From positions 12,826,771 to 12,890,770 of the forward strand of contig NC_049990.1 in the NCBI RefSeq assembly GCF_000003815.2: a stretch of 64,000 nt of DNA, read 5' to 3'. Made by a program: the position numbers and the translations under genes. The notes under the pieces were generated by a model that was given only the letters and a program-made list of their open reading frames with translations, ran no database searches and was not told the origin of the DNA. The stretch's first letter is position 1; each line of letters begins with the position of its first letter. The DNA comes from Branchiostoma floridae. Taxonomy: Eukaryota; Chordata; Leptocardii; Amphioxiformes; Branchiostomatidae. Shown here piece after piece: positions 6,630 through 53,900 of this stretch.

Positions 6630-7285
6630 GTACCCCTAAACCTGCGTGTACTTTGCCTACATGTGGGGGCAGGCACCTCTAAACCTACATGTACCTACAG
6701 TTTTGGGAAGGCGCGCACCTCTAAACCTACATGTACCTACAGTTTTGGGCAGGCACCTCTAAACCTACATGTACCTACAGTTTGGGGCAGGCACCTCTAA
6801 ACCTACATGTACCTACAGTTTTGGGCAGGCACCTCTAAACCTACATTTACCTACAGTTTTGGGCAGGCACCTCTAAACCTACATGTACCTGCAGTTTGGG
6901 CAGGCACCTCTAAACCTACATGTACCTACAGTTTTGGGAAGGCACCTCTAAACCTACATGTACCTACAGTTTTGGGCAGGCACCTCTAAACCTACATGTA
7001 CCTACAGTTTTGGGAAGGCATCTCTAAACCTACATGTACCTACAGTTTTGGGAAGGCGCCTCTAAACCTACATGTACCTACAGTTTTGGGAAGGCACCTC
7101 TAAACCTACATGTACCTACAGTTTTGGGAAGGCACCTCTAAACCTACAAGTACCTACAGTTTTGGGTAGGCACCTCTAAACCTGCATGTACCTACAGTTT
7201 GGGTAGGCACCTCTAAACCTACATGTACCTACAGTTTTGGGTTGACACCTCTAAACCTACATATACCTACAGTTTGAGGCATGCG
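6630..7285. repeat. 38-bp minisatellite, copy 1 (about 16 units)
   Basis: Tandem units centre on cacctctaaacctacatg followed by tacctacagttttgggcagg. The period is 38 bp, with a few units carrying extra gcgc or lacking one T. Units abut directly with no unique spacers, so this is not CRISPR-like. It lies just 3' of the unit 1 LRR gene, as its larger relative does in unit 2. Confidence 0.95.
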
Positions 7286-7289
7286 CCTC

Positions 7290-7620
7290 AATATGACAAA
7301 AAGCGTGTTTCACTTGTTAAAACACCGTAGCAGCTGTTGAAAGCCTGTCGCACTTGTTGACAACTTGTGACGCCTGTTGTAAGCCTCTGGCGACTGTCGA
7401 AAGCTTGTGGTACCTGTTTTAAGCTTTTAGAATCTTTCTTAAGCATTCCGCACCTGTTTTAGGCTGTACATAGCGCCCGTTGAAAGCTTGCGGCACCTGT
7501 TTTATAGCTCGTGGCACATGTTTAAAGCTTGAGAAACCTGCTTAAAGTGTGTGACACCTAGGTTAGGTGTGTGGCACCTGTTAACATATTGTGACACCTG
7601 TTTTAGCAGTTGTTTTATTG
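7290..7620. repeat. Degenerate CACCTG-containing tandem repeat, copy 1
   Basis: Imperfect units of about 25-30 bp resemble gcttgtggcacctgttttaa. Each carries CACCTG or a near match, which is the E-box also bound by ZEB/Snail factors. The array sits between the 38-bp minisatellite and the LRR stop codon, and recurs in the same place in unit 2. Confidence 0.75.
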
Positions 7621-7642: not shown

Positions 7643-9868
7643 TTAGGAACACCTCTGCCTGAATTCTTGGAGACATGTGTTCCGACGTGTCGCTTGATCT
7701 GGGCAAACCTTCCGAAACTTCTTGCTGCATTTACTGCATTTCTTGCGGCACTTATTACACCTCTTTCTGCAACTAGCTTTCTTCCAAAACTGTATAGCGA
7801 TGCACTTCTTCCAAAAGATTCTGTCACTTTCACTGCTGCAACTTGCTGCAAGGTTATGGGTAGTTACTTGGGACGTGCTTCCGGCAGTAGAGGGAACAGG
7901 GGTAGATTCTGGGGTGGAGGTTCCAGCAGTGGATAGAACAGAGGTAGACTCTGGGGTGGAGGTTCCAGCAGTGGATAGAACAGAGGTAGACTCTGGGGTG
8001 GAGGTTCCAGCAGTGGATAGAACAGATGTAGACTCTGGGGTGGAGGTTCCAGCAGTGGATAGAACAGATGTAGGCTCTGGGGTGGAGGTTCCAGCAGTGG
8101 ATAGAACAGAGGTAAACTCTGGGGTGGAGGTTCCAGCAGTGGATAGAACAGAGGTAGACTCTGGGGTGGAGGTTCCAGCAGTGGATAGAACAGAGGTAGA
8201 CTCTGGGGTGGAGGTTCTAGCAGTGGATAGAACAGAGGTAGACTCTGGGGTGGAGGTTCCAGCAGTGGATAGAACAGAGGTAGACTCTGGGGTGGAGGTT
8301 CTAGCAGTGGATAGAACAGAGGTAGACTCTGGGGTGGAGGTTCTAGCAGTGGATAGAACAGAGGTAGACTCTGGGGTGGAGGTTCTAGCAGTGGATAGAA
8401 CAGAGGTAGACTCTGGGGTGGAGGTTCTTGTAGTGGAGGGAACTGTTGTGGTCTCTACACAGACCAGATCTTCAGCATTTACATCGTTTAGCAAGCTTAG
8501 ACCTGTAAGGTTAGCGGGGCTAGTAGGTCCGGCACAAATTATATGGCTTTCAAAGGCATGAGACCCGTTCATCAGTTGTTTAAAGGGAAGCATGTTGCAG
8601 TCGCACTGCCAGGGGTTGTCGGAAAGGTCAACGGAGGAAATGGCGGCCAATGCTGGAAATATGTCGGCCGGAAGGTTCGGTAACTGATTTTGTTCAAGAT
8701 CCAAATTCAGTAGATTACCAAGTCCCTCAAGTATATCAGCTGGAAGACTGTACAACTGATTTCGTTTAAGATCCAATCTTTCTAAGTTACCAAGACCCTC
8801 AAATACACCAGCTGGAAGACTGGATAACTGGTTTTGTTCAAGATCCAATCTCTCTAAGTTACCAAGACCCTCAAATACACCAGCTGGAAGACTGGATAAC
8901 TGGTTTTGTTCAAGATCCAATCTCTCTAAGTTACCAAGGCCCTCAAATACACCAGCTGGAAGACTGGATATCTGATTTTCCTCAAGACGCAATCTCTCTA
9001 GATTAGCAAGTCCCTCAAATACACCAGCTGTAAGGTTGGACAACTGATTATCGTAAATGTACAAGTGAAGGAGGTTCCCAAGTCCCACAAATACACCAGC
9101 TGGAAGGTTAGACAAGTGATTATCGTAAAGGTACAAGTAAATGAGGCTACCAAGTCCCTCAAATGTACCAACTGGAAGACTAGACATCTGATTGTTTTCC
9201 ATATCCAATTCCTCCAGGTTGCCAAGATCCTCGAATATATAAGCTGGAAGGGTAGACAATTGATTTTCGTAAAGGTACAATGTTACGAGGTTACCAAGTC
9301 CCTTAAATATATCAGCTGGAAGATTGGTCAATAGATTTTCTTCAAGATACAATTCCTCTAGGTTGCCAAGTCCCTGAAATATATCAGCTGGAAGACTGGA
9401 CAATTCATTACGGTATAGGGACAAGTATGTGAGGCTACCAAGACCCTGAAATATATCAGCTGGAAGAGTAGTCAACTGATTTACTTCAAGAGACAGGGAA
9501 AGGAGTTTACCAAGTCCCTCAAATGTGTTTGCGGGGAGACTAGCTAACTGATTACCTGCAAGGGTTAGGGAAGTTAAATTAGTCAAGTCCTGAAATACTC
9601 CATCATTGATTATGGAGATCTGATTTGAGGACAGTGATAGGATCTCTACGCTTCCATATCTTGAAAAATCAGCCTGACTTGGGGTTGAGATGGCGTTGCC
9701 ACGCAGCAAAAGGCGAGTGATGGTTGTAGGCAGGTCCTGGGGGACGCTGGTGAGGCCAGACCATCCACAGTCACAGGTTGTGGATGAACAGCTGCAGGTT
9801 TGCGCTGCTGTTGGTCCAGCCTCCTTCAGGACGATCAGCAGCAGAACCAGCAGCCTCTTCATCTTCAT
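7643..9868 (-). CDS. Secreted LRR protein with Thr/Pro stalk and basic ten-cysteine tail (LRR-1)
   Basis: The frame is a single coding exon of about 741 residues. I start at ATG 9868 (MKMKRLLVLLL), because the slightly longer open frame begins with TTG; a likely 3' splice site lies just upstream at about 9902. Residues 1-22 look like a signal peptide. A cysteine N-cap follows (TCSCSSTTCDCGW), then about 14 LRRs of 24 residues (LxxLxLxxNQLxxLPAxxFxGLGN), and a C-cap with NPWQCDCNMLPFKQLM. Next come 13 units of TSTPESTSVLSTA (14 residues, 42 bp), which look O-glycosylated and mucin-like. The last about 65 residues hold ten Cys among many Lys/Arg. No membrane segment or GPI tail is visible, so secretion is likely. 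It resembles innate-immune or VLR-like LRR receptors in layout only; ligand and role are unknown. Confidence 0.88.
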   Translation of the reverse strand: MKMKRLLVLLLIVLKEAGPTAAQTCSCSSTTCDCGWSGLTSVPQDLPTTITRLLLRGNAISTPSQADFSRYGSVEILSLSSNQISIINDGVFQDLTNLTSLTLAGNQLASLPANTFEGLGKLLSLSLEVNQLTTLPADIFQGLGSLTYLSLYRNELSSLPADIFQGLGNLEELYLEENLLTNLPADIFKGLGNLVTLYLYENQLSTLPAYIFEDLGNLEELDMENNQMSSLPVGTFEGLGSLIYLYLYDNHLSNLPAGVFVGLGNLLHLYIYDNQLSNLTAGVFEGLANLERLRLEENQISSLPAGVFEGLGNLERLDLEQNQLSSLPAGVFEGLGNLERLDLEQNQLSSLPAGVFEGLGNLERLDLKRNQLYSLPADILEGLGNLLNLDLEQNQLPNLPADIFPALAAISSVDLSDNPWQCDCNMLPFKQLMNGSHAFESHIICAGPTSPANLTGLSLLNDVNAEDLVCVETTTVPSTTRTSTPESTSVLSTARTSTPESTSVLSTARTSTPESTSVLSTARTSTPESTSVLSTAGTSTPESTSVLSTARTSTPESTSVLSTAGTSTPESTSVLSTAGTSTPEFTSVLSTAGTSTPEPTSVLSTAGTSTPESTSVLSTAGTSTPESTSVLSTAGTSTPESTSVLSTAGTSTPESTPVPSTAGSTSQVTTHNLAASCSSESDRIFWKKCIAIQFWKKASCRKRCNKCRKKCSKCSKKFRKVCPDQATRRNTCLQEFRQRCS
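7893..8440 (-). repeat. 42-bp coding repeat forming the stalk of LRR-1
   Basis: Thirteen head-to-tail 42-bp units encode (R/G)TSTPESTSVLSTA. Most differ by only one or two bases, which implies recent expansion or homogenisation. The unit 2 paralogue has only one such unit (TVPSTARTSTP). The complementary strand is also open through the array, a by-product of the 42-bp period. Confidence 0.93.
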
Positions 9869-9975
9869 GTTGAACCCACGCAAGGGTATCTATTCTCCAC
9901 TGCAAAAAAAAAATTCTACTGTTACGCATTTCAAAATTGCTGAGTTGGTCTACCCTGGATACAGAAAGCATAAAT
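9869..9975 (-). promoter_or_regulatory. 5' UTR and splice acceptor of LRR-1
   Basis: On the minus strand an uninterrupted T tract ending in GCAG lies at about 9902-9916. It is a strong 3' splice site 30-odd bases before the ATG, suggesting a non-coding first exon further upstream (higher coordinates). I could not place that exon or a TATA box. Confidence 0.45.
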
Positions 9976-14909: not shown

Positions 14910-15569
14910 GCATAACAGCTGCCTGTACGCACATGTGTATGTATCAAGAAAGGGCAAATGGGGACATATGTCATTTGTGAAGTCTTCTTGATGTCATTGC
15001 TGTTACCATTGGCAACAGGCAGGCATAATCACCTCACCATTATCTGATCTGTTTGGCACCTTTGGACCAAAGGAACACATTTTCTAAAAATGGCACAATT
15101 TTGCCTTGACCAACTTTTAACTTGGTCAGGGCCAGTGTTGTATTCAACACTTACTAACAGAGACAGTACTGATAGCACCTGTGAACGTTCGAACAAAGAG
15201 TTGCGAGCTTCAAAGAATTTAATCTCTCCAGCTGTACAAAATAACAAGTTACAGGAGCCAGAACGCATCATACACTTCAGTGAAGACACCAAACCTTTGT
15301 TGTACTTTAAATGTGAAGGACACACAAAGGGACGTTGCTCTCACCTAACCTCCCTATGGGGACAATAGGGCGCATGCATATTAGAAAAGAGCTCTACTGA
15401 ACAATTGAAAGTCGCTTGATAATACTAATATACCTCAGTCAAGTAATTCAAGTCAATATAGTACTTTTAGCTACCTTGCCCGCCCCCCCTCCCCCCCCCC
15501 CCAACACACACACACACGACCTTCAGATCAGGGGACTGGGTAGGTAGTACTTATGATTGTCAAGAGGTC

Positions 15570-15704
15570 NNNNNNNNNNNNNNNNNNNNNNNNNNNNNNN
15601 NNNNNNNNNNNNNNNNNNNNNNNNNNNNNNNNNNNNNNNNNNNNNNNNNNNNNNNNNNNNNNNNNNNNNNNNNNNNNNNNNNNNNNNNNNNNNNNNNNNN
15701 NNNN
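15570..15704. other. Assembly gap (135 N)
   Basis: The run of N falls within one unit of the 1.7-kb array. The neighbouring unit (17277-17430) shows what kind of sequence is probably missing. Gap length and repeat copy number here should not be trusted. Confidence 0.99.
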
Positions 15705-15783
15705 GATGCTAAACTCCGTAATGCACTTGGAATTAGTTCATGCATATTGTGGCACTATCTACACCGTGATGTTTCGTATCATA

Positions 15784-15861
15784 CAGTCGCATGCAAAATT
15801 ATTCAACCCCCCTCACATTTTTGCTATTTTGGTAAAACAAGATACACTACAACTACATGTA
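15784..15861. mobile_element. 78-bp Tc1/mariner-like terminal fragment with TA duplication
   Basis: The sister unit reads cgtatca-TA-gttgaatgg at about 17551-17569. Here the same flanks are split by 78 bp, with TA at 15782-15783 and 15860-15861. The insert starts cagtcgcatgcaaaattatt, typical of Tc1/mariner terminal repeats; the right end is not a clear inverted copy. Confidence 0.6.
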
Positions 15862-18800
15862 GTTGAATGGAGTGAGGACTTGCAATACTTCTCACATACG
15901 ACTTTCAGCCGACTCTTAAGTTAAAACATTTTGGCAGAACTTCATTTAACGACGTCATAGACCCTGGAGGTCACGTATAGTTACTGTGTTCTTCGATTCT
16001 GAGCCTTTACATTGTATTAGTGACTTGTGAAACAAAACAGAAGGGCAACTTATTTGACAGAAAGGTAGGCCCTAATAACTTGACTATTTATCTCACCAGT
16101 TGAGCTATAGAATTCATTTCTGAAAATGGCGTGGTTTTCCCTGTCAAACTTAAAGTTTGCGTAAATGTAAGTTCTAAATTAACACTGTGGCGGTACTGAA
16201 TGTATCTGTGAACATTCCAAAGTGAGAAATGTTACGAGTTATGCCATATAACAACAAATTATAGGAGCAAGGACGTCCCAAATTATATGAGCCAGGTCAT
16301 GTCATACACTTCAATAGAGACACCTGTGTTGTACTTTAAATTTGAAAATCACACCCTGCAGGTTGTTGTCCTCACCTGACATATCCTTCCCATGGGGACC
16401 TCAGGGCGCGTGTTCAATGCTTGAAGGCCTACACGATATACTTTTCGAGTTCTCTTTGATCTCCGTCTGCCTTAGCTTATAATGCTTTAAACTTACTCGT
16501 TCATTCCTACCCATTCTATGGTGTTTTTGCCCCCCCCCCCCATGTTTGCATTAACTAGGGCCTTGCGTACAGTTGATGTAATGTTGTAATAAGATCTGAA
16601 GTCCTTGACATTTGTGTTGGTCATACTTGTACATCAAGAAAGGGAAAATGAGGACATGCGTCATTTGGGACGACTTTTTGATGTCATTGCTGTTACCATT
16701 GGCAACAGGCAGCCATAATCACCTCACCATTATCTGATCTGTTTGGCACCTTTGAGCCAAAGGAACACATTTTCTAAAAATGGCACAATTTTGCCTTGAC
16801 CAACTTTTAACTTGGTCAGGGCCAGTGTTGTAATCAACACTTAATAGCCAAAGTGTACTAAATACCGAGACAGTACTGGTAGCACCTGTGAACGTTCGAA
16901 CAAAGAGTTGCGAGCTTCAAAGATTTTAATCTCTCCAGCTGTACAAAATAACAAGTTACAGGAGCCAGAACGCATCATACACTTCAGTGAAGACACCAAA
17001 CCTTTGTTGTACTTTAAATGTGAAGGACACACAAAGGGACGTTGCTCTCACCTAACCTCCCTATGGGGACAATAGGGCGCATGCATATTAGAAAAGAGCT
17101 CTACTGAACAATTGAAAGTCGCTTGATAATACTAATATACCTCAGTCAAGTAAGTCAAGTCAATATAGTACTTTTAGCTACCTTGCCCGCCCCCCCTCCC
17201 CCCCCCCCCAACACACACACACACGACCTTCAGATCAGGGGACTGGGTAGGTAGTACTTATGATTGTCAAGAGGTCGGCTAGTTTTAAAATCAAGCGTAT
17301 TTTTCATCCGAAAATCGCAGGGAGGCTTAGCCAATAAAATAAAGGAATTTGTTAATGATCAGCAGCTCTCTGTGACCAACAGATATGAAACTCCTAGCAT
17401 TTGCAAAAATCGATGCTAAACTGTGGCTTGTAAACAGTACTAGTCGTCGAATTTGACATGATTTTCACCTTTTTTGTATAATTAGCACGCTCCGTAATGC
17501 ACTTGGAATTAGTTCATGCATATTGTGGCACTATCTACACCGTGATGTTTCGTATCATAGTTGAATGGAGTGAGGACTTGCAATACTTCTCACATACGAC
17601 TTTCAGCCGACTCTTAAGTTAAAACATTTTGGCAGAACTTCATTTAACGACGTCATAGACCCTGGAGGTCACGTATACTTACTGTGTTCTTCGATTCTAA
17701 GCCTTTACATTGTATTAGTGACTTGTGAAACAAAACAGAAGGGCAACTTATTTGACAGAAAGGTAGGCCCTAATAACTTGACTATTTAGCTCACCAGTTG
17801 AGCTATAGAATTCATTTCTGAAAATGGCGTGGTTTTCCCTGTCAAACTTAAAGTTTGCGTAAATGTAAGTTCTAAATTAACACTGTGGCGGTACTGAATG
17901 TATCTGTGAACATTCCAAAGTGAGAAATGTTACGAGTTATGCCATATAACAACAAATTATAGGAGCAAGGACGTCCCAAATTATATGAGCCAGGTCATGT
18001 CATACACTTCAATAGAGACACCTGTGTTGTACTTTAAATTTGAAAATCACACCCTGCAGGTTGTTGTCCTCACCTGACATATCCTTCCCATGGGGACCTC
18101 AGGGCGCGTGTTCAATGCTTGAAGGCCTACACGATATACTTTTCGAGTTCTCTTTGATCTCCGTCTGCCTTAGCTTATAATGCTTTAAACTTACTCGTTC
18201 ATTCCTACCCATTCTTTGGTGTTTTTGCCCCCCCATGTTTGCATTAACTAGGGCCTTGCGTACAGTTGATGTAATGTTGTAATAAGATCTGAAGTCCTTG
18301 ACATTTGTGTTGGTCATACTTGTACATCAAGAAAGGGAAAATGAGGACATGCGTCATTTGGGACGACTTTTTGATGTCATTGCTGTTACCATTGGCAACA
18401 GGCAGGCATAATCACCTCACCATTATCTGATCTTTTTGGCACCTTTGAGCCAAAGGAACACATTTTCTAAAAATGGCACAATTTTGCCTTGACCAACTTT
18501 TAACTTGGTCAAGGCCAGTGTTGTATTCAACACTTACTAACAGAGACAGTACTGATAGCACCTGTGAACGTTCGAACAAAGAGTTGCGAGCTTCAAAGAA
18601 TTTAATCTCTCCAGCTGTACAAAATAACAAGTTACAGGAGCCAGAACGCATCATACACTTCAGTGAAGACACCTTTGTTGTACTTAAAATGTGAAGGACA
18701 CACAAAGGGACGTTGCTCTCACCTAACATCCCTATGGGGACATTTTGGCGCACGCGCAGTGCCCGAAGACTGGCACAGTGTCCTCCACAGGATCCAAGTT

Positions 18801-20769: not shown

Positions 20770-22278
20770 CTGATCATCTCTGATATCAGGCAGGACTGCT
20801 GAGAAACAGCAGGAAGTCAGCCTGGGTGTCAGACACAGCGCGAGGCGATATTTGTCCCTTCGGTCGGGGGAGCAACTTGCCCCGCTCCCAGAGTTGCCAT
20901 CCTGCCTCTGTCTCTTGCGCCAGGCGCGCTAGCTAACTTGGGGCAGGGTGCCACTCTCAGAGCGGGACCTCGGTTTTCCCCCTAGCCGAAGAGATTTCGT
21001 CATGTACAATGTATCACCTTGCACGCTTTTAGTCAGCCATCCAGGCTTAATAGGAAGACTCACCGAGGTGTGGATGGACGACAGATCTTGGCTCTTCAGA
21101 CTGAAAACTTCTGCAAGTGTCGGGAGTCTGTCTTACACTGTCTAGATCTGTTCGTCACTGCTGTCCTGATATGGCTAGCGGTTGAACTAGGTGATTTTTG
21201 ATTTTATGCGTTCTGAGCTCGCACTGCCTACTGTCATCATCTGGTGATAAATCTGTCACAGTGCTAATCACATAGTAACCGGATCGGGGTAATTTGCAGG
21301 CAGGCAGATGACGGTGAAGGACGTTTGTGCTGCAGTCATGAGCTCAGAAACAAGCTGTGTTTGTCAGGGAGAGCAGATCTTTTGAACGTATTATGAAACG
21401 GATCCTTCGCATTATGTGAGAAACAGTTAGTCTACAGTGGATACATGTATAATAAATAAATAAATACAGCGGGAAAGTGGAGAAGAAAAAGGTATAATCA
21501 TCTCAGGAATCAAAACGTCAAATGCCTACCTAGGCCTGTTGCATCATTTGTTATCAAACGCATTTCCGATAAATTATGTAAGGTACACACCTAACAAGAC
21601 CTTTTAGATTAGCCTGGCCAAAAGATTCTTACATTATGTCATGGTGGTGCCAAAACTACCAAGATAGAGAAAGGTCATTGTTTTTGAATAAGTAGATGTT
21701 CCTCTCTCCAGCAACATTAAAGCGTAACAGATAATGGGCCTTAAAAATTACTAAAATTCAGTGATAAAGCTTTCAGTGGTTCTGGTAACCCCTAGTGCAC
21801 CCTCTTAAACTTCAATGCTTCATCTTCAACTTTTGGTCTGCACAACTTAAGAACCCATGCTATATGGAAATGCAAAACTGGATGATGTTCTGAATAAGAT
21901 TTGTCAGGAACACCATCGCAATTTCAGTAATTTTCTGCCACAAATTGTTTAATTTTCGAGGGTCTCTGAGGGGGGTCCAAGAACGCCATAACGAAAAATA
22001 GCTGGAGGGTTTTAATTATTATGGCTGTTCATAGTTCCGCATACCTAACACATATACAAAGCCGATTTGGCCGACCCCATCTTCCGACCTCTGCCTGGTT
22101 TTGCCTTTTTTATTCGTGTAGCCGGACTAGATCTTAGTAATAATCACTGGATACAAGGGCAGCCTTGGCTACACGTCCTTCACAGCCGAGGGACATATAA
22201 ACAGGGCTATGTATCACACCAATGAATAAGTTAGAATAAATCGATAATATCAAGTCCCTGCCTCCCCTCTGTTCCTAG
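20770..22278. other. Start of duplication unit 2, non-coding
   Basis: Positions 20800-21250 match 95-540. The rest up to 22278 contains no open frame that continues the serine dehydratase reading, so the other exons of that gene are not next to the SDS-like exon here. Confidence 0.5.
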
Positions 22279-22538
22279 ATGATGAGCGCCCCCTGGTGGA
22301 GCTGGCCTGCGGTGCAGCCCTGGCAGCGATCTACAGTCGTGTGATCTCCAGACTGCAGGACCAGGGCAGACTGCCAGGGGGCGCCACGTCTGTGGTGGTG
22401 GTGGTGGTTTGTGGCGGGAACAGCATCACACTGAAGCAGCTGGAGTTGGGCTGGGTACCGGTAAAGCGTACCGGTACAAAACCGGTTTTTCTTATTGGAC
22501 CGGTCCAGAAAAAAAACGGACCTGAAAAAATTAGGTGA
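22279..22538 (+). pseudogene. Serine dehydratase-like last exon, copy 2, C-terminus replaced by a transposon
   Basis: After a good acceptor (cctctgttcctag) the frame reads LVELACGAALAAIYSRVISR, then LQDQGRLPGG, a Val run, CGGNSITLKQLE, and then runs into a MITE at 22446, stopping at TGA 22536-22538. It is closer to the SDS family consensus than copy 1. The original ending survives beyond the insertion: ACT-TGG-AAG-GCT-CAG then TGA at 22971-22973. No upstream SDS exons are found between 9.9 and 22.2 kb, so this looks like an orphan exon in a pseudogene. If still transcribed, the protein would gain about 30 transposon-encoded residues. Confidence 0.65.
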
Positions 22539-25847: not shown

Positions 25848-27175
25848 ATGTACCTACAGTTTGGGGCAGGCACCCCTAAACCTATATGTACCTACAGTTT
25901 TGGGCAGGCACCTCTAAACTTATATGTACCTACAGTTTTGGGCAGGCACCCCTAAACTTATATGTACCTACAGTTTTGGGCAGGCACCTCTAAACTTATA
26001 TGTACCTACAGTTTTGGGTAGGCACCTCTAAACTTATATGTACCTACAGTTTTGGGCAGGCACCCCTAAACCTACATGTACCTACAGTTTTGGGTAGGCA
26101 CCTCTAAACTTATATGTACCTACAGTTTTGGGTAGGCACCTCTAAACTTATATGTACCTACAGTTTTGGACAGGCACCCCTAAACCTACATGTACCTACA
26201 GTTTTGGGCAGGCACCCCTAAACCTACATGTACCTACAGTTTTGGGCAGGCACCTCTAAACCTACATGTACCTACAGTTTTGGGTAGGTACCTCTGAACC
26301 TACATGTACCTACAGTTTTGGGCAGGCACCCCTAAACCTACATGTACCTACAGTTTTGGGCAGGCACCCCTAAACCTACATGTACCTACAGTTTTGGGCA
26401 GGCACCTCTAAACCTACATGTACCTACAGTTTTGGGTAGGTACCTCTGAACCTACATGTACCTACAGTTTTGGGCAGGCACCTCTAAACCTACATGTAGC
26501 TACAGTTTTGGACAGGCACATTACCTTCAGTTTGGAGCAGGCACCTCTAACGCTACCGTAGCTACAATTTTGGGCAGGCACCTCTAAACCAACATATACC
26601 CAAAGTTTGGACCAGCACCTCTAAACCTAGTACTTGTATCTACAGTTTGGGGCACCTCTAAACCTACATGTACCTTCAGATTTGGGAAGGTGCCTCTATG
26701 CCTTGTACCTGCAATTTTGGGCAAAGAGACCCCTAAACCTACATATACCTACACTTATAAGTAGATAGTCCCCACAGGTCTAAACCTACGTGTACCTACA
26801 GTTTTTGGGCCAGGTACATCTTAACCTACAGGTACCTACGGTTTGAGGAAGAGACAGTCCTTTATAATATAAACGTACATGTACCTACAGTTTTGGGTAG
26901 GCACCTCTTAACCTATATGCACCTACAGTTTGAGCAGATGCCTCTAAACCTACATGTACCTACAGTTTTGGGCAGGCACCTCTAAACCTACATGTACCTA
27001 CAGTTTTGGGCAGGCACCTCTAAACTTACACAAGTACCTACAGTTTTTGGTAAGCACCTCTAAACTACATGTACCTACAGTTTTGAGCAGGCACCACTAA
27101 ATCTACATGTTACTTCATCTAGACACCCCTAAACCTACATGTACCTACAATTTTGGTAGGCACCTCTACCCCTGG
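25848..27175. repeat. 38-bp minisatellite, copy 2 (about 34 units)
   Basis: Same unit as at 6630-7285 but about twice as long, with degenerate units after about 26500. Two local variants dominate: aaacttatatgtacc in the first part and aaacctacatgtacc later, which points to independent expansion. Confidence 0.93.
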
Positions 27176-28570: not shown

Positions 28571-29738
28571 TTAGGAACAACTCTTCCTGAATTCGCGGAG
28601 ACATGTGTTCCAACGTGTTCCTTTATTTGGACAAATCTTCCTAAACTTCTTCGTGCATTTATTGCATTTCCTGTTGCACTTACGGCACATCTTCCTGCAA
28701 CTATTTTTTTTCCAAAAGTGTATGGTGATACAATTCTTCCAAAAGGCGCTGTCACTTTCACTGCTGCAACTTGCTGCATGTTTCAGGGTAGTCGCTGGGG
28801 TCGAGGTTCTCGCAGTGGAGGGAACTGTTGTGGCCCCTGGACACATATCTTCAGGTGTTACATCGTTTAGCAAGCTTAGACCTGTAAGGTTAGCGGGTCC
28901 GGCACATGTGATCTGGCTTTCAAAGTCATGAGACCCGTTCATCAGTTGTTTAAAGGGAAGCATGTTGCAGTCACACTGCCAGGGGTTGTCATAAATGCTA
29001 ACAGTTCGAATTGAGGCCAGTATTGGAAACATTTCAGCCTCGAGACTGGACAACCGATTGCCATGAAACCTCAAGTACCCCATGTTACCAAGTCCCTCAA
29101 TCATGTTTGCAGGCAGACTAGTTAACTGATTGTCCTGCAGCCACAAGCCGGCCGGATCATCTAGTCCATCAAATATGCCATCTGGTAGACTGGACAACTG
29201 ATTACCGGGAAAATACAACCAAGCCGATTTACCAATTCCCTCAAATATGCCAGCTGGAAGACTTAACAACTGATTATTGGCAAAAAACAAGTCAGACAGA
29301 TTACCAAGTCCCTGAAATATGCCAGCTGGAAGACTTGACAACTGATTACCGGTAAAAAACAAGGAACGCAGGTTACTAAGACCCTCAAATATGTCGGCTG
29401 GAAGACTAGATAACTGATTATGTTGAAGACTCAAATGCTCCAGTTCACCAAGTGGCTCAAGTATGTCAGCTGGTAAGTCAGTCAAGTGATTTGCATCAAA
29501 ATTTAGGACTGTTAAGTTAGTCAGGTACTGGAATGCTCCGTCATTGATTCTGGAGATCTGGTTTTCTGAAAGGTCTAATCTTTCCAAGCTTCGATACCTT
29601 GATACAGACTGACTTACGCTTCTAAGGGCGTTGCCATACAAGCCAAGGCTTGTGATGGTTGTAGGCAGGTTAAAGGGTACATTAGTCAACTGATTACCTA
29701 GGCTAAGTTCAGTCAGGCTGGGCAAGTCATCAAATATT
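28571..29738 (-). CDS. Secreted LRR protein, unit 2 paralogue (LRR-2), 5' end lost in gap
   Basis: The frame is open from the gap edge to TAA 28571-28573, about 389 residues visible. It encodes about ten LRRs, a C-cap (NPWQCDCNMLPFKQLM), a very short stalk (TVPSTARTSTPATT) and the basic tail with ten Cys in the same spacing as LRR-1. Many LRR positions have diverged (SLFFTGNQL, AWLYFPGNQL, GLWLQDNQL), whereas the C-cap and tail stay close. The visible N-terminal part, IFDDLPSLTELSL then NQLTNVPFNLPTTITSL, shows an LRR where LRR-1 has its cysteine cap, so the true N-cap must be inside or beyond the gap. The signal peptide cannot be seen. Function is inferred only from the LRR family: extracellular recognition. 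Confidence 0.82.
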
Positions 29739-29838
29739 NNNNNNNNNNNNNNNNNNNNNNNNNNNNNNNNNNNNNNNNNNNNNNNNNNNNNNNNNNNNNN
29801 NNNNNNNNNNNNNNNNNNNNNNNNNNNNNNNNNNNNNN
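29739..29838. other. Assembly gap (100 N) at the 5' end of LRR-2
   Basis: A round 100-N run, probably a gap of unknown size. It removes the start codon, signal peptide and N-cap of LRR-2. Confidence 0.99.
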
Positions 29839-50900: not shown

Positions 50901-53900
50901 ATCAGTGAGCCCGGTGTTATCTGGATGAGTCCATTCTGGCATGGAGGGGGTACATATTTTTTAAATTCATCTTTGGACTGTTGATAATATAATGTCTCTC
51001 AGTGGGGGTATTTTTGAACTGGACTATTTTGCAATTTTACATGGAGTGTACTGGAAGAGTCCCATTCTTGTATGGAGGGGGACATTTTTTTAAAATTTGT
51101 TTATGGACTTTGGTGATTTGATATGTGAAATTGTTTCAGTAACTGACAGCATCAAAGTTCCCTTACTGTCTAAAACGTTAGTGTACAAATATTGAGCTTT
51201 AAAACACTGTATCGTATAAAAGCTCGATAAAAGCTTGGGGTTAGATTTACAATTTACAGTTTGCATCGGGCATGTTTTGAGTCAATACTCTTCTCAGCGA
51301 CCACCTGCCCAAATCGACCGCTTTTCCCCGGTCCCCCGGGTGGTCATCTTGGACAGGTTTGACTGTATTCTTAAATTCGATCTTTGTAGTTACATTTATA
51401 TGATAGTATCCTAAGGTGACTGAATTGGATCGTCTTTGAACAATCTCAAATTAAGACAATTGTGTCATGCAAAGAATATGTACAACAAGAGCTTGCATTG
51501 ATTGGAAAAGATGTAATAACTTTCAGTTCTTTAAATGTCCTTTTGTTTCAGTGAGGTCAAGGCCAGTGGACTGCTTCTGAACCTCCCAGACAAGGAGAAC
51601 CCACTGAAGCAGAGTCCGGCCATGCAGAATGCCAAGAAGGGGAATGGGGCTAGCCCTAACGTTACCAAAGCTCTCAAAACCCTCAACATTTCCAACAAAG
51701 GATCTGGAACAAACAAGGATGACGCAGCAACTAGGCTGATGAAAGAACTGATCACAAAAAAATCCTCTCCTGGGGCAGATAGATGTGGAATTAAGCACCC
51801 AGCCACTTGTGTATCTGCAAATGCAACCCCCATGGAGTTGGCAGATAGTGGTAATTCGGTAAAGAAGGCCAGCAGACACTTTCTCAGTGCAACAAGTGTC
51901 CAATCTACCGGAAAATCTGCCAACAAATACAGCTATCAAACACGAAGCAAAGACAAAAGTACTGCGCAGAGTACAGGTTCATGTGCCTTAGCAAAGACAG
52001 CACTTACATCTTCACCACTGTCTACTGCACAGAGTACAGGTTCATGTGCCTTAGCAAAGACAGCACTTACGTCTTCACCACTTTCTACTGCACAGAGTAC
52101 AGGTTCATGTGCCTTAGCAAAGACAGCACTTACGTCTTCACCACTTTCTACTGCACAGAGTACAGGTTCATGTGCCTTAGCAAAGACAGCACTTACGTCT
52201 TCACCACTTTCTACACAAGCTCCAGCTGCAGGGACGAACAGCAGTGCATTGTCTGCTTCTGCCGGCAGCACTGGAGGAGACCAAAAGGGTGGCAACACTG
52301 GCGGAGACCAAACGGGTGGCAACACTGGAGGAGACCAAAAGGGTGGCAACACTGGAGGAGACCAAAAGGGTGGCAACACTGGAGGAGACCAAAAGGGTGG
52401 CAACACTGGAGGAGGCCAAAAGGGTGGCAACACTGGAGGAGACCAAAAGGGTGGCAACACTGGAGGAGACCAAAAGGGTGGCAACACTGGAGGAGGCCAA
52501 AAGGGTGGCAACACTGGAGGAGGCCAAAAGGGTGGCAACACTGGAGGAGACCAAAAGGGTGGCAACACTGGAGGAGGCCAAAAGGGTGGCAACACTGGAG
52601 GAGGCCAAAAGGGTGGCAACACTGGAGGAGACCAAAAGGGTGGTAGCACTGGAGGAGACCAAAAGGGTGGCAACACTGGAGGAGGCCAAAAGGGTGGCAA
52701 CACTGGAGGAGACCAAAAGGGTGGTAGCACTGGAGGAGGCCAAAAGGGAGGTAACACTGGAGGAGGCCAAAAGGGTGGCAACACTGGAGGAGACCAAAAG
52801 GGTGGCAACACTGGAGGAGGCCAAAAGGGTGGCAACACTGGAGGAGGCCAAAAGGGAGGTAACACTGGAGGAGATCAAAAGGGAGGTTCGCCTGAGTTGA
52901 CGAACATTGGATCAAAGATCCTGGGTTAGTCATCACCATGTTTAAGTAACACAATCATGCTGCAACAGTTCTAGTCTGTTTTGAAATATTTGAAATTTGT
53001 CCATCCAACACAGCTGATTTTTTTTTACATCAATTGTGTTATACATGTTTGTGCTTTATAAGTTTTATAATTGAATGTTCTAGATACGTTATTTTGTAGC
53101 GAGTTATTCACATTTCTCGAATCAAGTACAACAGATTTTAAGGTACTCATACATTTATTTTGTTCTTTGTGTAACTGTTACAGTTCTTGCCATACATTGT
53201 ACCATGTGTACAATTGTCATGCAATAAAGTTATGTAATCCATTTTAAAGGCACATAATGTTGAGGCATATCGTAAGGAAACTTTGCTGGTTGAAATTAAT
53301 CAGCAAAGTACATTTCCAAGTAGATTTTCCAAGTCCTCGCTCCTCAGTGTCTTCCCAGTTTTGAAGTAACAAGACTCCATTATCCTGTTTCTCCACAGAA
53401 CTGACCAAGACTACAGGAGTAGATGGAGCCTTTCAGCTCATCATTGGCAGGATGACAGGGAAGGTGGCCTCTTCCTCACCGCTGGCAGAAGACATTGTCT
53501 CCAAGCTCCTTAAACTGAAGGGACCCATCAACCTTAAGATAGGTCAGGGGACTGTTAAAGTTGTTACTACACATCCGTACTTGATTGAATTGTACAGTAC
53601 AAGTACATGTAGATGTTATATTGACCTTGTTGCATACGCTTTCTTTGAGTTGTTGCATTTTTAAAATGATAAACCTCTAAGATAAACCTCTAAGGGACAC
53701 CAATATCTATACCAACTAAGTACCGTAAATGCATATGCAAAGTCTGCGGGTAGCAGGAAAATGGAGTGTTCGCTGTGGTTTTAAGTTTGCGGTAGTGCCA
53801 TAGACTGCAGTCTCAAACTATAATGGAAAAATATTCGCGGCGGTTTTAAGTTCACTGTGAAGTGGTCACTGTGAAACCGCAAACATAAAACCACCGGGAA

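What the first reader, a model, noticed from the sequence alone, without database searches (positions are those of the whole stretch)
7643..9868. LRR protein with mucin-like stalk and basic ten-cysteine tail
Both paralogues end in about 65 residues with ten Cys at conserved spacing and many Lys/Arg, after an LRR C-cap and a Thr/Ser/Pro stalk. The LRR-cap-stalk order recalls lamprey VLRs, but the cationic Cys tail in place of a membrane anchor is unfamiliar to me. The layout would fit a secreted pattern-recognition molecule with an antimicrobial- or polyanion-binding end.
Basis: partly seen in the sequence, partly recalled or inferred. Interest (0 to 1): 0.72.

Follow-up and report, generated by a model that had tools for sequence, protein, structure and literature searches.

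The report
Secreted LRR proteins with cysteine-rich cationic tail
Two neighbouring animal genes appear to encode secreted horseshoe-shaped recognition proteins that end in a positively charged, cysteine-packed tail of no recognised family, a layout much like the secreted antibody-like molecules of lampreys.

Summary
9868..7643 (-) is an open frame of 741 residues: signal-like start, LRR N-cap, 15 LRRs, C-cap, 201-residue Thr/Ser/Pro stalk, and a 65-residue tail with ten Cys and net charge +17. A paralogue, 5' end lost in an assembly gap, has the same ten-Cys spacing and 45 of 65 identical tail residues, but a 19-residue stalk. The tail has no significant match in Pfam, NCBIfam or PDB sequences, and Foldseek finds no PDB chain. 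Five Cys lie on one face of a predicted helix. Neutral simulation keeps all ten Cys in 0.7% of runs, but tail dN/dS does not exclude neutrality. Secreted lamprey VLRB also ends in a multi-Cys tail, which makes disulfide-linked decamers (PMC11335541), so the layout is VLRB-like; but the gene is complete in the genome and the tail not detectably homologous, so it is not a VLR. Most likely a germline-encoded secreted recognition protein whose tail is a disulfide-stapled cationic anchor, or else an oligomeriser. Species, transcripts and copy number were not established.

The parts
7643..9868 (-). gene copy 1: single uninterrupted coding frame, 741 aa plus stop
   Evidence: Pfam LRR hits
9797..9868 (-). 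signal-peptide-like hydrophobic N terminus (by eye; end approximate)
   Evidence: read from the translations; no signal predictor was available
9900..9913 (-). possible splice acceptor (T-rich tract then GCAG), 31 bases before the ATG, suggesting an upstream 5' UTR exon
   Evidence: read directly; not tested
8642..9796 (-). LRR N-cap (four Cys) and 15 LRR motifs, mostly 24-residue (72-bp) units, acidic overall
8459..8641 (-). LRR C-cap (approximate limits), four Cys
   Evidence: alignment with copy 2; weak PDB matches to Toll, amphioxus Bf66946 and SLITRK caps; Pfam lists no match for window:8441-8614
7850..8452 (-). Thr/Ser/Pro-rich stalk, 201 aa, mostly a 42-bp minisatellite (7879-8427) with 13.1 copies at 97%
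7646..7840 (-). ten-Cys cationic tail, 65 aa, copy 1
7614..7619 (-). AATAAA polyadenylation-like signal, 23 bases after the stop codon
   Evidence: read directly
28571..29737 (-). gene copy 2, 388 aa seen, 5' end missing in the assembly gap 29739-29838
28574..28768 (-). ten-Cys cationic tail, copy 2

Best explanation
A germline-encoded, secreted pattern-recognition protein. The LRR horseshoe, acidic in net charge and most variable at concave-face positions, would bind a microbial or tissue ligand. The Thr/Ser/Pro stalk, whose length is set by a minisatellite in copy 1, would be an O-glycosylated spacer. The C-terminal 65 residues would fold into a compact helical module: a central helix carries five Cys on one face, which pair with the five Cys outside it, stapling the module and exposing about 20 Lys/Arg. 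That cationic module would hold the protein on polyanions (glycosaminoglycans, mucins, teichoic acid or LPS), giving local retention and avidity. Shown here: the frame, the layout, the Cys spacing, the charge, the helical periodicity, the lack of a recognised relative of the tail in the libraries searched. Inferred: secretion, the disulfide pairing, glycosylation, polyanion binding, and any immune role.
Against: Only two sequences. Tail dN/dS is 0.48 with a bootstrap range 0.20-1.19, changes are spread 11/10/13 over codon positions, and synonymous against non-synonymous change gives P 0.12. The 3' flank just after the stop is as similar as the tail (28 of 30 in the block that spans the stop). 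The helix segment 23-47 was chosen after the pattern was noticed; segments 1-24 and 47-65 are not significant (3028 and 3990, 889 and 286 of 5000 shuffles). The tail model is of modest confidence (the five models range from 70.4 down to 45.0), and in the longer model the tail is mostly below pLDDT 50 though still helical. The concave positions of copy 2 are near neutral (7 acidic, 6 basic of 40), so the parallel with Bf66946 holds for copy 1 only. No binding or expression data.
Confidence: 0.4

Rival explanations
1. The tail works as in secreted lamprey VLRB: its cysteines form intermolecular disulfides and make a covalent multimer, so weak LRR binding becomes high-avidity binding. The heptad of Cys would be the core of a disulfide-locked coiled coil.
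For: Same order of parts; VLRB's stalk holds multiple C-terminal Cys that form disulfide-linked decamers. Cys on heptad core positions. Mosquito LRIM1/APL1C are secreted LRR proteins that pair through a Cys next to a coiled coil.
Against: Ten Cys, an even number, against seven in the VLRB motif; no sequence similarity between the tails (the alignment score is reached by 1416 and 1849 of 2000 shuffles); strong like charge on each tail would oppose assembly without a polyanion (inference).
Confidence: 0.33
2. The tail is an antimicrobial effector peptide delivered by the LRR domain, or released by cleavage in the stalk.
For: Amphipathic cationic segment, +17 charge, Cys scaffold.
Against: No match to an antimicrobial family in Pfam; no cleavage site was sought or identified; no activity data.
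Confidence: 0.15
3. The tail is a fast-drifting, lineage-specific C terminus without a selected function, its similarity reflecting only a tandem duplication and gene conversion.
For: dN/dS range includes 1; synonymous divergence of the C-cap (0.115) is far lower than of the N-terminal LRR part (0.80; Fisher P 0.0006); matching repeats 19-21 kb apart lie at and downstream of both genes.
Against: All ten Cys kept, 0.7% expected by neutral simulation; kept and with no stop codon 0.16-0.24%; frame open without any indel.
Confidence: 0.12

Closest known systems
Lamprey VLRB (variable lymphocyte receptor B)
   Same: Signal peptide, LRR N-cap, LRRs, C-cap, Thr/Pro-rich stalk, multi-Cys C terminus, secreted form.
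   Different: VLRB is completed somatically and its printed tail motif has seven Cys with other spacing; here the whole of copy 1 is complete in the genomic sequence, the tail is longer, far more basic, has ten Cys, and shows no sequence similarity.
Amphioxus VLR-like proteins (Bf66946, PDB 4xsq, and eight other candidates of Cao et al. 2016)
   Same: LRR proteins with both caps and the 24-residue LRR consensus; C-cap match E 0.001.
   Different: Bf66946 is short (five LRRs) and the text read (parts 1-2 of 5) mentions no ten-Cys tail; whether our genes are among the nine candidates could not be tested.
Mosquito LRIM1/APL1C
   Same: Secreted LRR proteins with a Cys-rich region and C-terminal coiled coil that form disulfide-bonded complexes (abstract and one section read).
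   Different: Their C terminus is a coiled coil that binds TEP proteins; no mucin-like stalk and no basic ten-Cys tail is mentioned in what was read.
Chondroadherin (LRR matrix protein)
   Different: No stalk and no ten-Cys module (recalled).

Membership tests
Variable lymphocyte receptor (VLR) | Cys-bearing LRR N-cap and C-cap around LRRs | tested here: met
   Copy 1: sequence and Pfam LRR hits; C-cap resemblance. The Pfam N-cap match (13.5 bits) stays below its cut-off of 25.8 and the C-cap piece has no Pfam match. N-cap of copy 2 not visible (gap).
Variable lymphocyte receptor (VLR) | Thr/Pro-rich stalk after the C-cap | tested here: met
   112 Ser/Thr and 17 Pro in 201 residues of copy 1; only 19 residues in copy 2
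Variable lymphocyte receptor (VLR) | Incomplete germline gene, completed by somatic insertion of LRR cassettes | tested here: not met
   Copy 1 is one complete frame in the genomic sequence with 15 LRR motifs
VLRB | Homologous seven-Cys C-terminal motif | tested here: not met
   Local alignment no better than shuffles; ten Cys with different spacing
VLRB | Secreted as disulfide-linked multimers | not testable with these tools
   needs expressed protein
   0 families for tail 1 and one unrelated match (E 0.18) for tail 2 at E up to 10
Amphioxus VLR-like LRR proteins | LRR N-cap and C-cap, no other known domain, LRRV consensus | tested here: inconclusive
   consistent by sequence, but the species is unknown and the nine candidates were not compared
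LRIM/APL1 family | LRR, Cys pattern, then coiled coil | tested here: inconclusive
   one heptad-patterned helix of about 25 residues; no LRIM profile compared

The most novel reading that the evidence does not exclude
A non-vertebrate chordate (if the host is amphioxus) carries a germline gene family with the whole molecular layout of a secreted VLRB: a diversifying LRR head, a homogenised C-cap, a mucin-like stalk, and a new ten-Cys cationic helical domain that makes it multivalent or anchors it to microbes. The split between a divergent LRR head and a near-identical C-cap in two neighbouring copies would be a germline counterpart of the variable and invariant parts of VLRs.
Probability: 0.2. 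Interest if true: 0.7.

Novelty: new variant of a known kind. Interest (0 to 1): 0.42.

Why it matters
If the tail is a real domain it is a disulfide-rich cationic fold without a recognised relative in Pfam or among solved structures, attached to an antibody-like LRR scaffold. It would show that the LRR-stalk-Cys-tail design of secreted VLRB can arise, or existed, without somatic assembly, and gives a simple biochemical test of how such molecules become multivalent or surface-bound.

Tried and rejected
Tail in known families: Pfam at E up to 10 gave nothing for tail 1 and one unrelated match (E 0.18) for tail 2; NCBIfam, which models prokaryote proteins, 0 for 2 tails; PDB sequences, 4 matches with one sequence (best E 0.097) and 7 with the two-row profile (best E 0.46), none significant. 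Fold of the tail model: Foldseek returned no PDB chain and no viral match at E up to 10; with a model of pLDDT 70 this does not prove a new fold. Tail relatives in viral and prokaryote contigs: 0 confirmed of 132 and of 58 pattern matches, as expected for an animal gene. VLRB-tail homology: rejected. Purifying selection on the whole tail: not demonstrated. Among the 50 fold rows VLR appears only inside chimaeras with LGR4 or Toll; this excludes nothing. By sequence, the 60 PDB rows shown of 210 do include lamprey VLRA (3m19, 3m18, E 4.7e-42 and 8.7e-42), below LRRC15 and LGR4.

The window's own assembly could not be searched: searches were all unanswered, so copy number, species and transcripts remain open. 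No tRNA and no Rfam family gave a clue to the species. The bacterial promoter scan is not informative for an animal gene. Ten stretches of the window (one of them the C-cap) were scanned with Pfam for context; nothing passed a curated cut-off.

Full report
Observation. The frame 9868..7643 on the minus strand is open from ATG to stop, 741 residues. It reads: hydrophobic signal-like start (by eye), a four-Cys N-cap, 15 LRR motifs mostly in 24-residue register, a four-Cys C-cap, a 201-residue stalk with 112 Ser/Thr, and a 65-residue tail. A T-rich tract ending in GCAG lies 31 bases before the ATG and AATAAA lies 23 bases after the stop (read), so the sequence looks like a complete coding exon. 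Copy 2, 29737..28571, has the same C-cap and tail; its N terminus is lost in a 100-N gap. In copy 2 the frame next to the gap reads as a further LRR directly before the LTNVPFNLP segment, where copy 1 has its N-cap cysteines, so copy 2 may be rearranged there.

The tail. Both tails have ten Cys at positions 1, 13, 24, 28, 31, 35, 38, 46, 56 and 64, net charge +17 and +16, and 45 of 65 residues identical without a gap. Under a neutral simulation with the observed 34 differences all ten Cys are kept in 0.7% of runs; total identity as high as seen arises in 8-10%. dN/dS is 0.48, bootstrap 0.20-1.19, and the synonymous against non-synonymous contrast gives P 0.12. So the Cys scaffold looks constrained; the rest is not shown to be. 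Residues 23-47 form a striking amphipathic pattern (1 and 0 of 5000 shuffles reach the moment), with Cys on heptad core positions; this segment was chosen after the pattern was seen, and the two ends of the tail show no such signal. AlphaFold2 on the two-row alignment gives three helices, 7-17, 21-45, 53-63, pLDDT 70.4 and pTM 0.45, with the five models ranging down to 45.0. In the 388-residue copy-2 model the LRR part is confident and the tail is mostly under 50, again helical. An attractive reading, not tested, is that the five Cys of the central helix pair with the five outside it.

No recognised family. Pfam, NCBIfam and PDB sequence searches give nothing significant, and Foldseek finds no PDB chain and no viral structure for the tail model. 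There was no eukaryote proteome to search and the genome search did not answer in 15 tries, so the spread of the tail is unknown.

Evolution. The two genes lie in the same orientation with starts of matching segments 20.4-20.9 kb apart, a 38-bp minisatellite lies downstream of each, and a further pair of segments (2160-2342 and 22263-22445, 87%) lies 20.1 kb apart; I infer a tandem segmental duplication. Synonymous divergence is 0.115 in the C-cap, 0.355 in the tail and 0.80 in the N-terminal LRR part; C-cap against N-terminal part P 0.0006, tail against N-terminal part P 0.06, C-cap against tail P 0.13. The C-cap end has thus been homogenised, or the LRR head has diversified; within the LRR units the five concave-face positions are the most variable. 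The stalk minisatellite has 13.1 copies of 42 bp at 97% in copy 1, while the stalk of copy 2 is only 19 residues.

Comparison. PMC11335541 (passages) states that the invariant VLRB stalk holds multiple C-terminal cysteines that form disulfide-linked soluble decamers, and prints the motif. PMC5395774 (passages) places the multimer-forming cysteines in the same stalk region. The layout is therefore VLRB-like. It is not a VLR by the tests possible: copy 1 is complete in the genomic sequence, and the tails are not similar beyond shuffles. Amphioxus VLR-like proteins are known: Bf66946 (PDB 4xsq) binds Gram-positive bacteria by acidic residues of its concave face (PMC4731796, parts 1-2 of 5), and PMC10199209 (abstract and passages) notes that neither Bf66946 nor FrLRR seems to arise by somatic recombination. 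The concave positions of our copy 1 are acidic (26 acidic, 9 basic of 70) but those of copy 2 are near neutral (7 and 6 of 40). Among solved structures 4xsq is the second-best match to our C-cap, E 0.001, tied in practice with Toll and SLITRK caps. Over the whole protein the best PDB sequence matches are LRRC15 and LGR4. The mosquito LRIM1/APL1C pair (PMC3077365, abstract and one section) is another secreted LRR design in which cysteines beyond the LRRs control complex formation. In lampreys VLRB associates with C1q and is thought to lead to C3 activation (PMC6015906, passages), a role that a constant tail could in principle share.

Literature. Searches (25 of 31 papers listed; 4 of 4; 5 of 5; 8 of 8; 12 of 42; 8 of 53) of the open-licence library listed no paper whose title or abstract start describes an LRR-stalk-ten-Cys-tail protein. 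Subscription papers are mostly not held, so this is weak evidence of novelty. PMC5787515 was seen in passages.

Verdict. A real and unusual layout, very likely a new variant of secreted LRR recognition proteins, with a tail module that has no recognised relatives in the libraries at hand. The mechanism preferred is a disulfide-stapled cationic anchor (0.4) over a VLRB-like covalent multimer (0.33). Species, expression and the spread of the family are the main gaps.

Noticed in passing
window 6667-7289 and 25848-27168: A 38-bp minisatellite lies downstream of both LRR genes; with the genes themselves and the pair 2160-2342 / 22263-22445 (87%) it suggests a tandem duplication of about 20 kb.
   Followed up: partly
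window 14943-18625: Segments repeated two or three times at a spacing of about 1.7 kb with 76-99% identity, possibly a tandemly duplicated mobile element.
   Followed up: no
window 51535-52929: Long plus-strand ORF with a 63-bp repeat (4 copies) and a 27-bp repeat encoding GGDQKGGNT-like units (23 copies); its first 219 residues have no Pfam match.
   Followed up: partly
window 29739-29838: Assembly gap that removes the N terminus of copy 2; the frame next to it suggests an extra LRR where copy 1 has N-cap cysteines.
   Followed up: partly
window 7879-8427: The stalk minisatellite is 97% uniform, so stalk length may well be polymorphic between individuals (inference).
   Followed up: no
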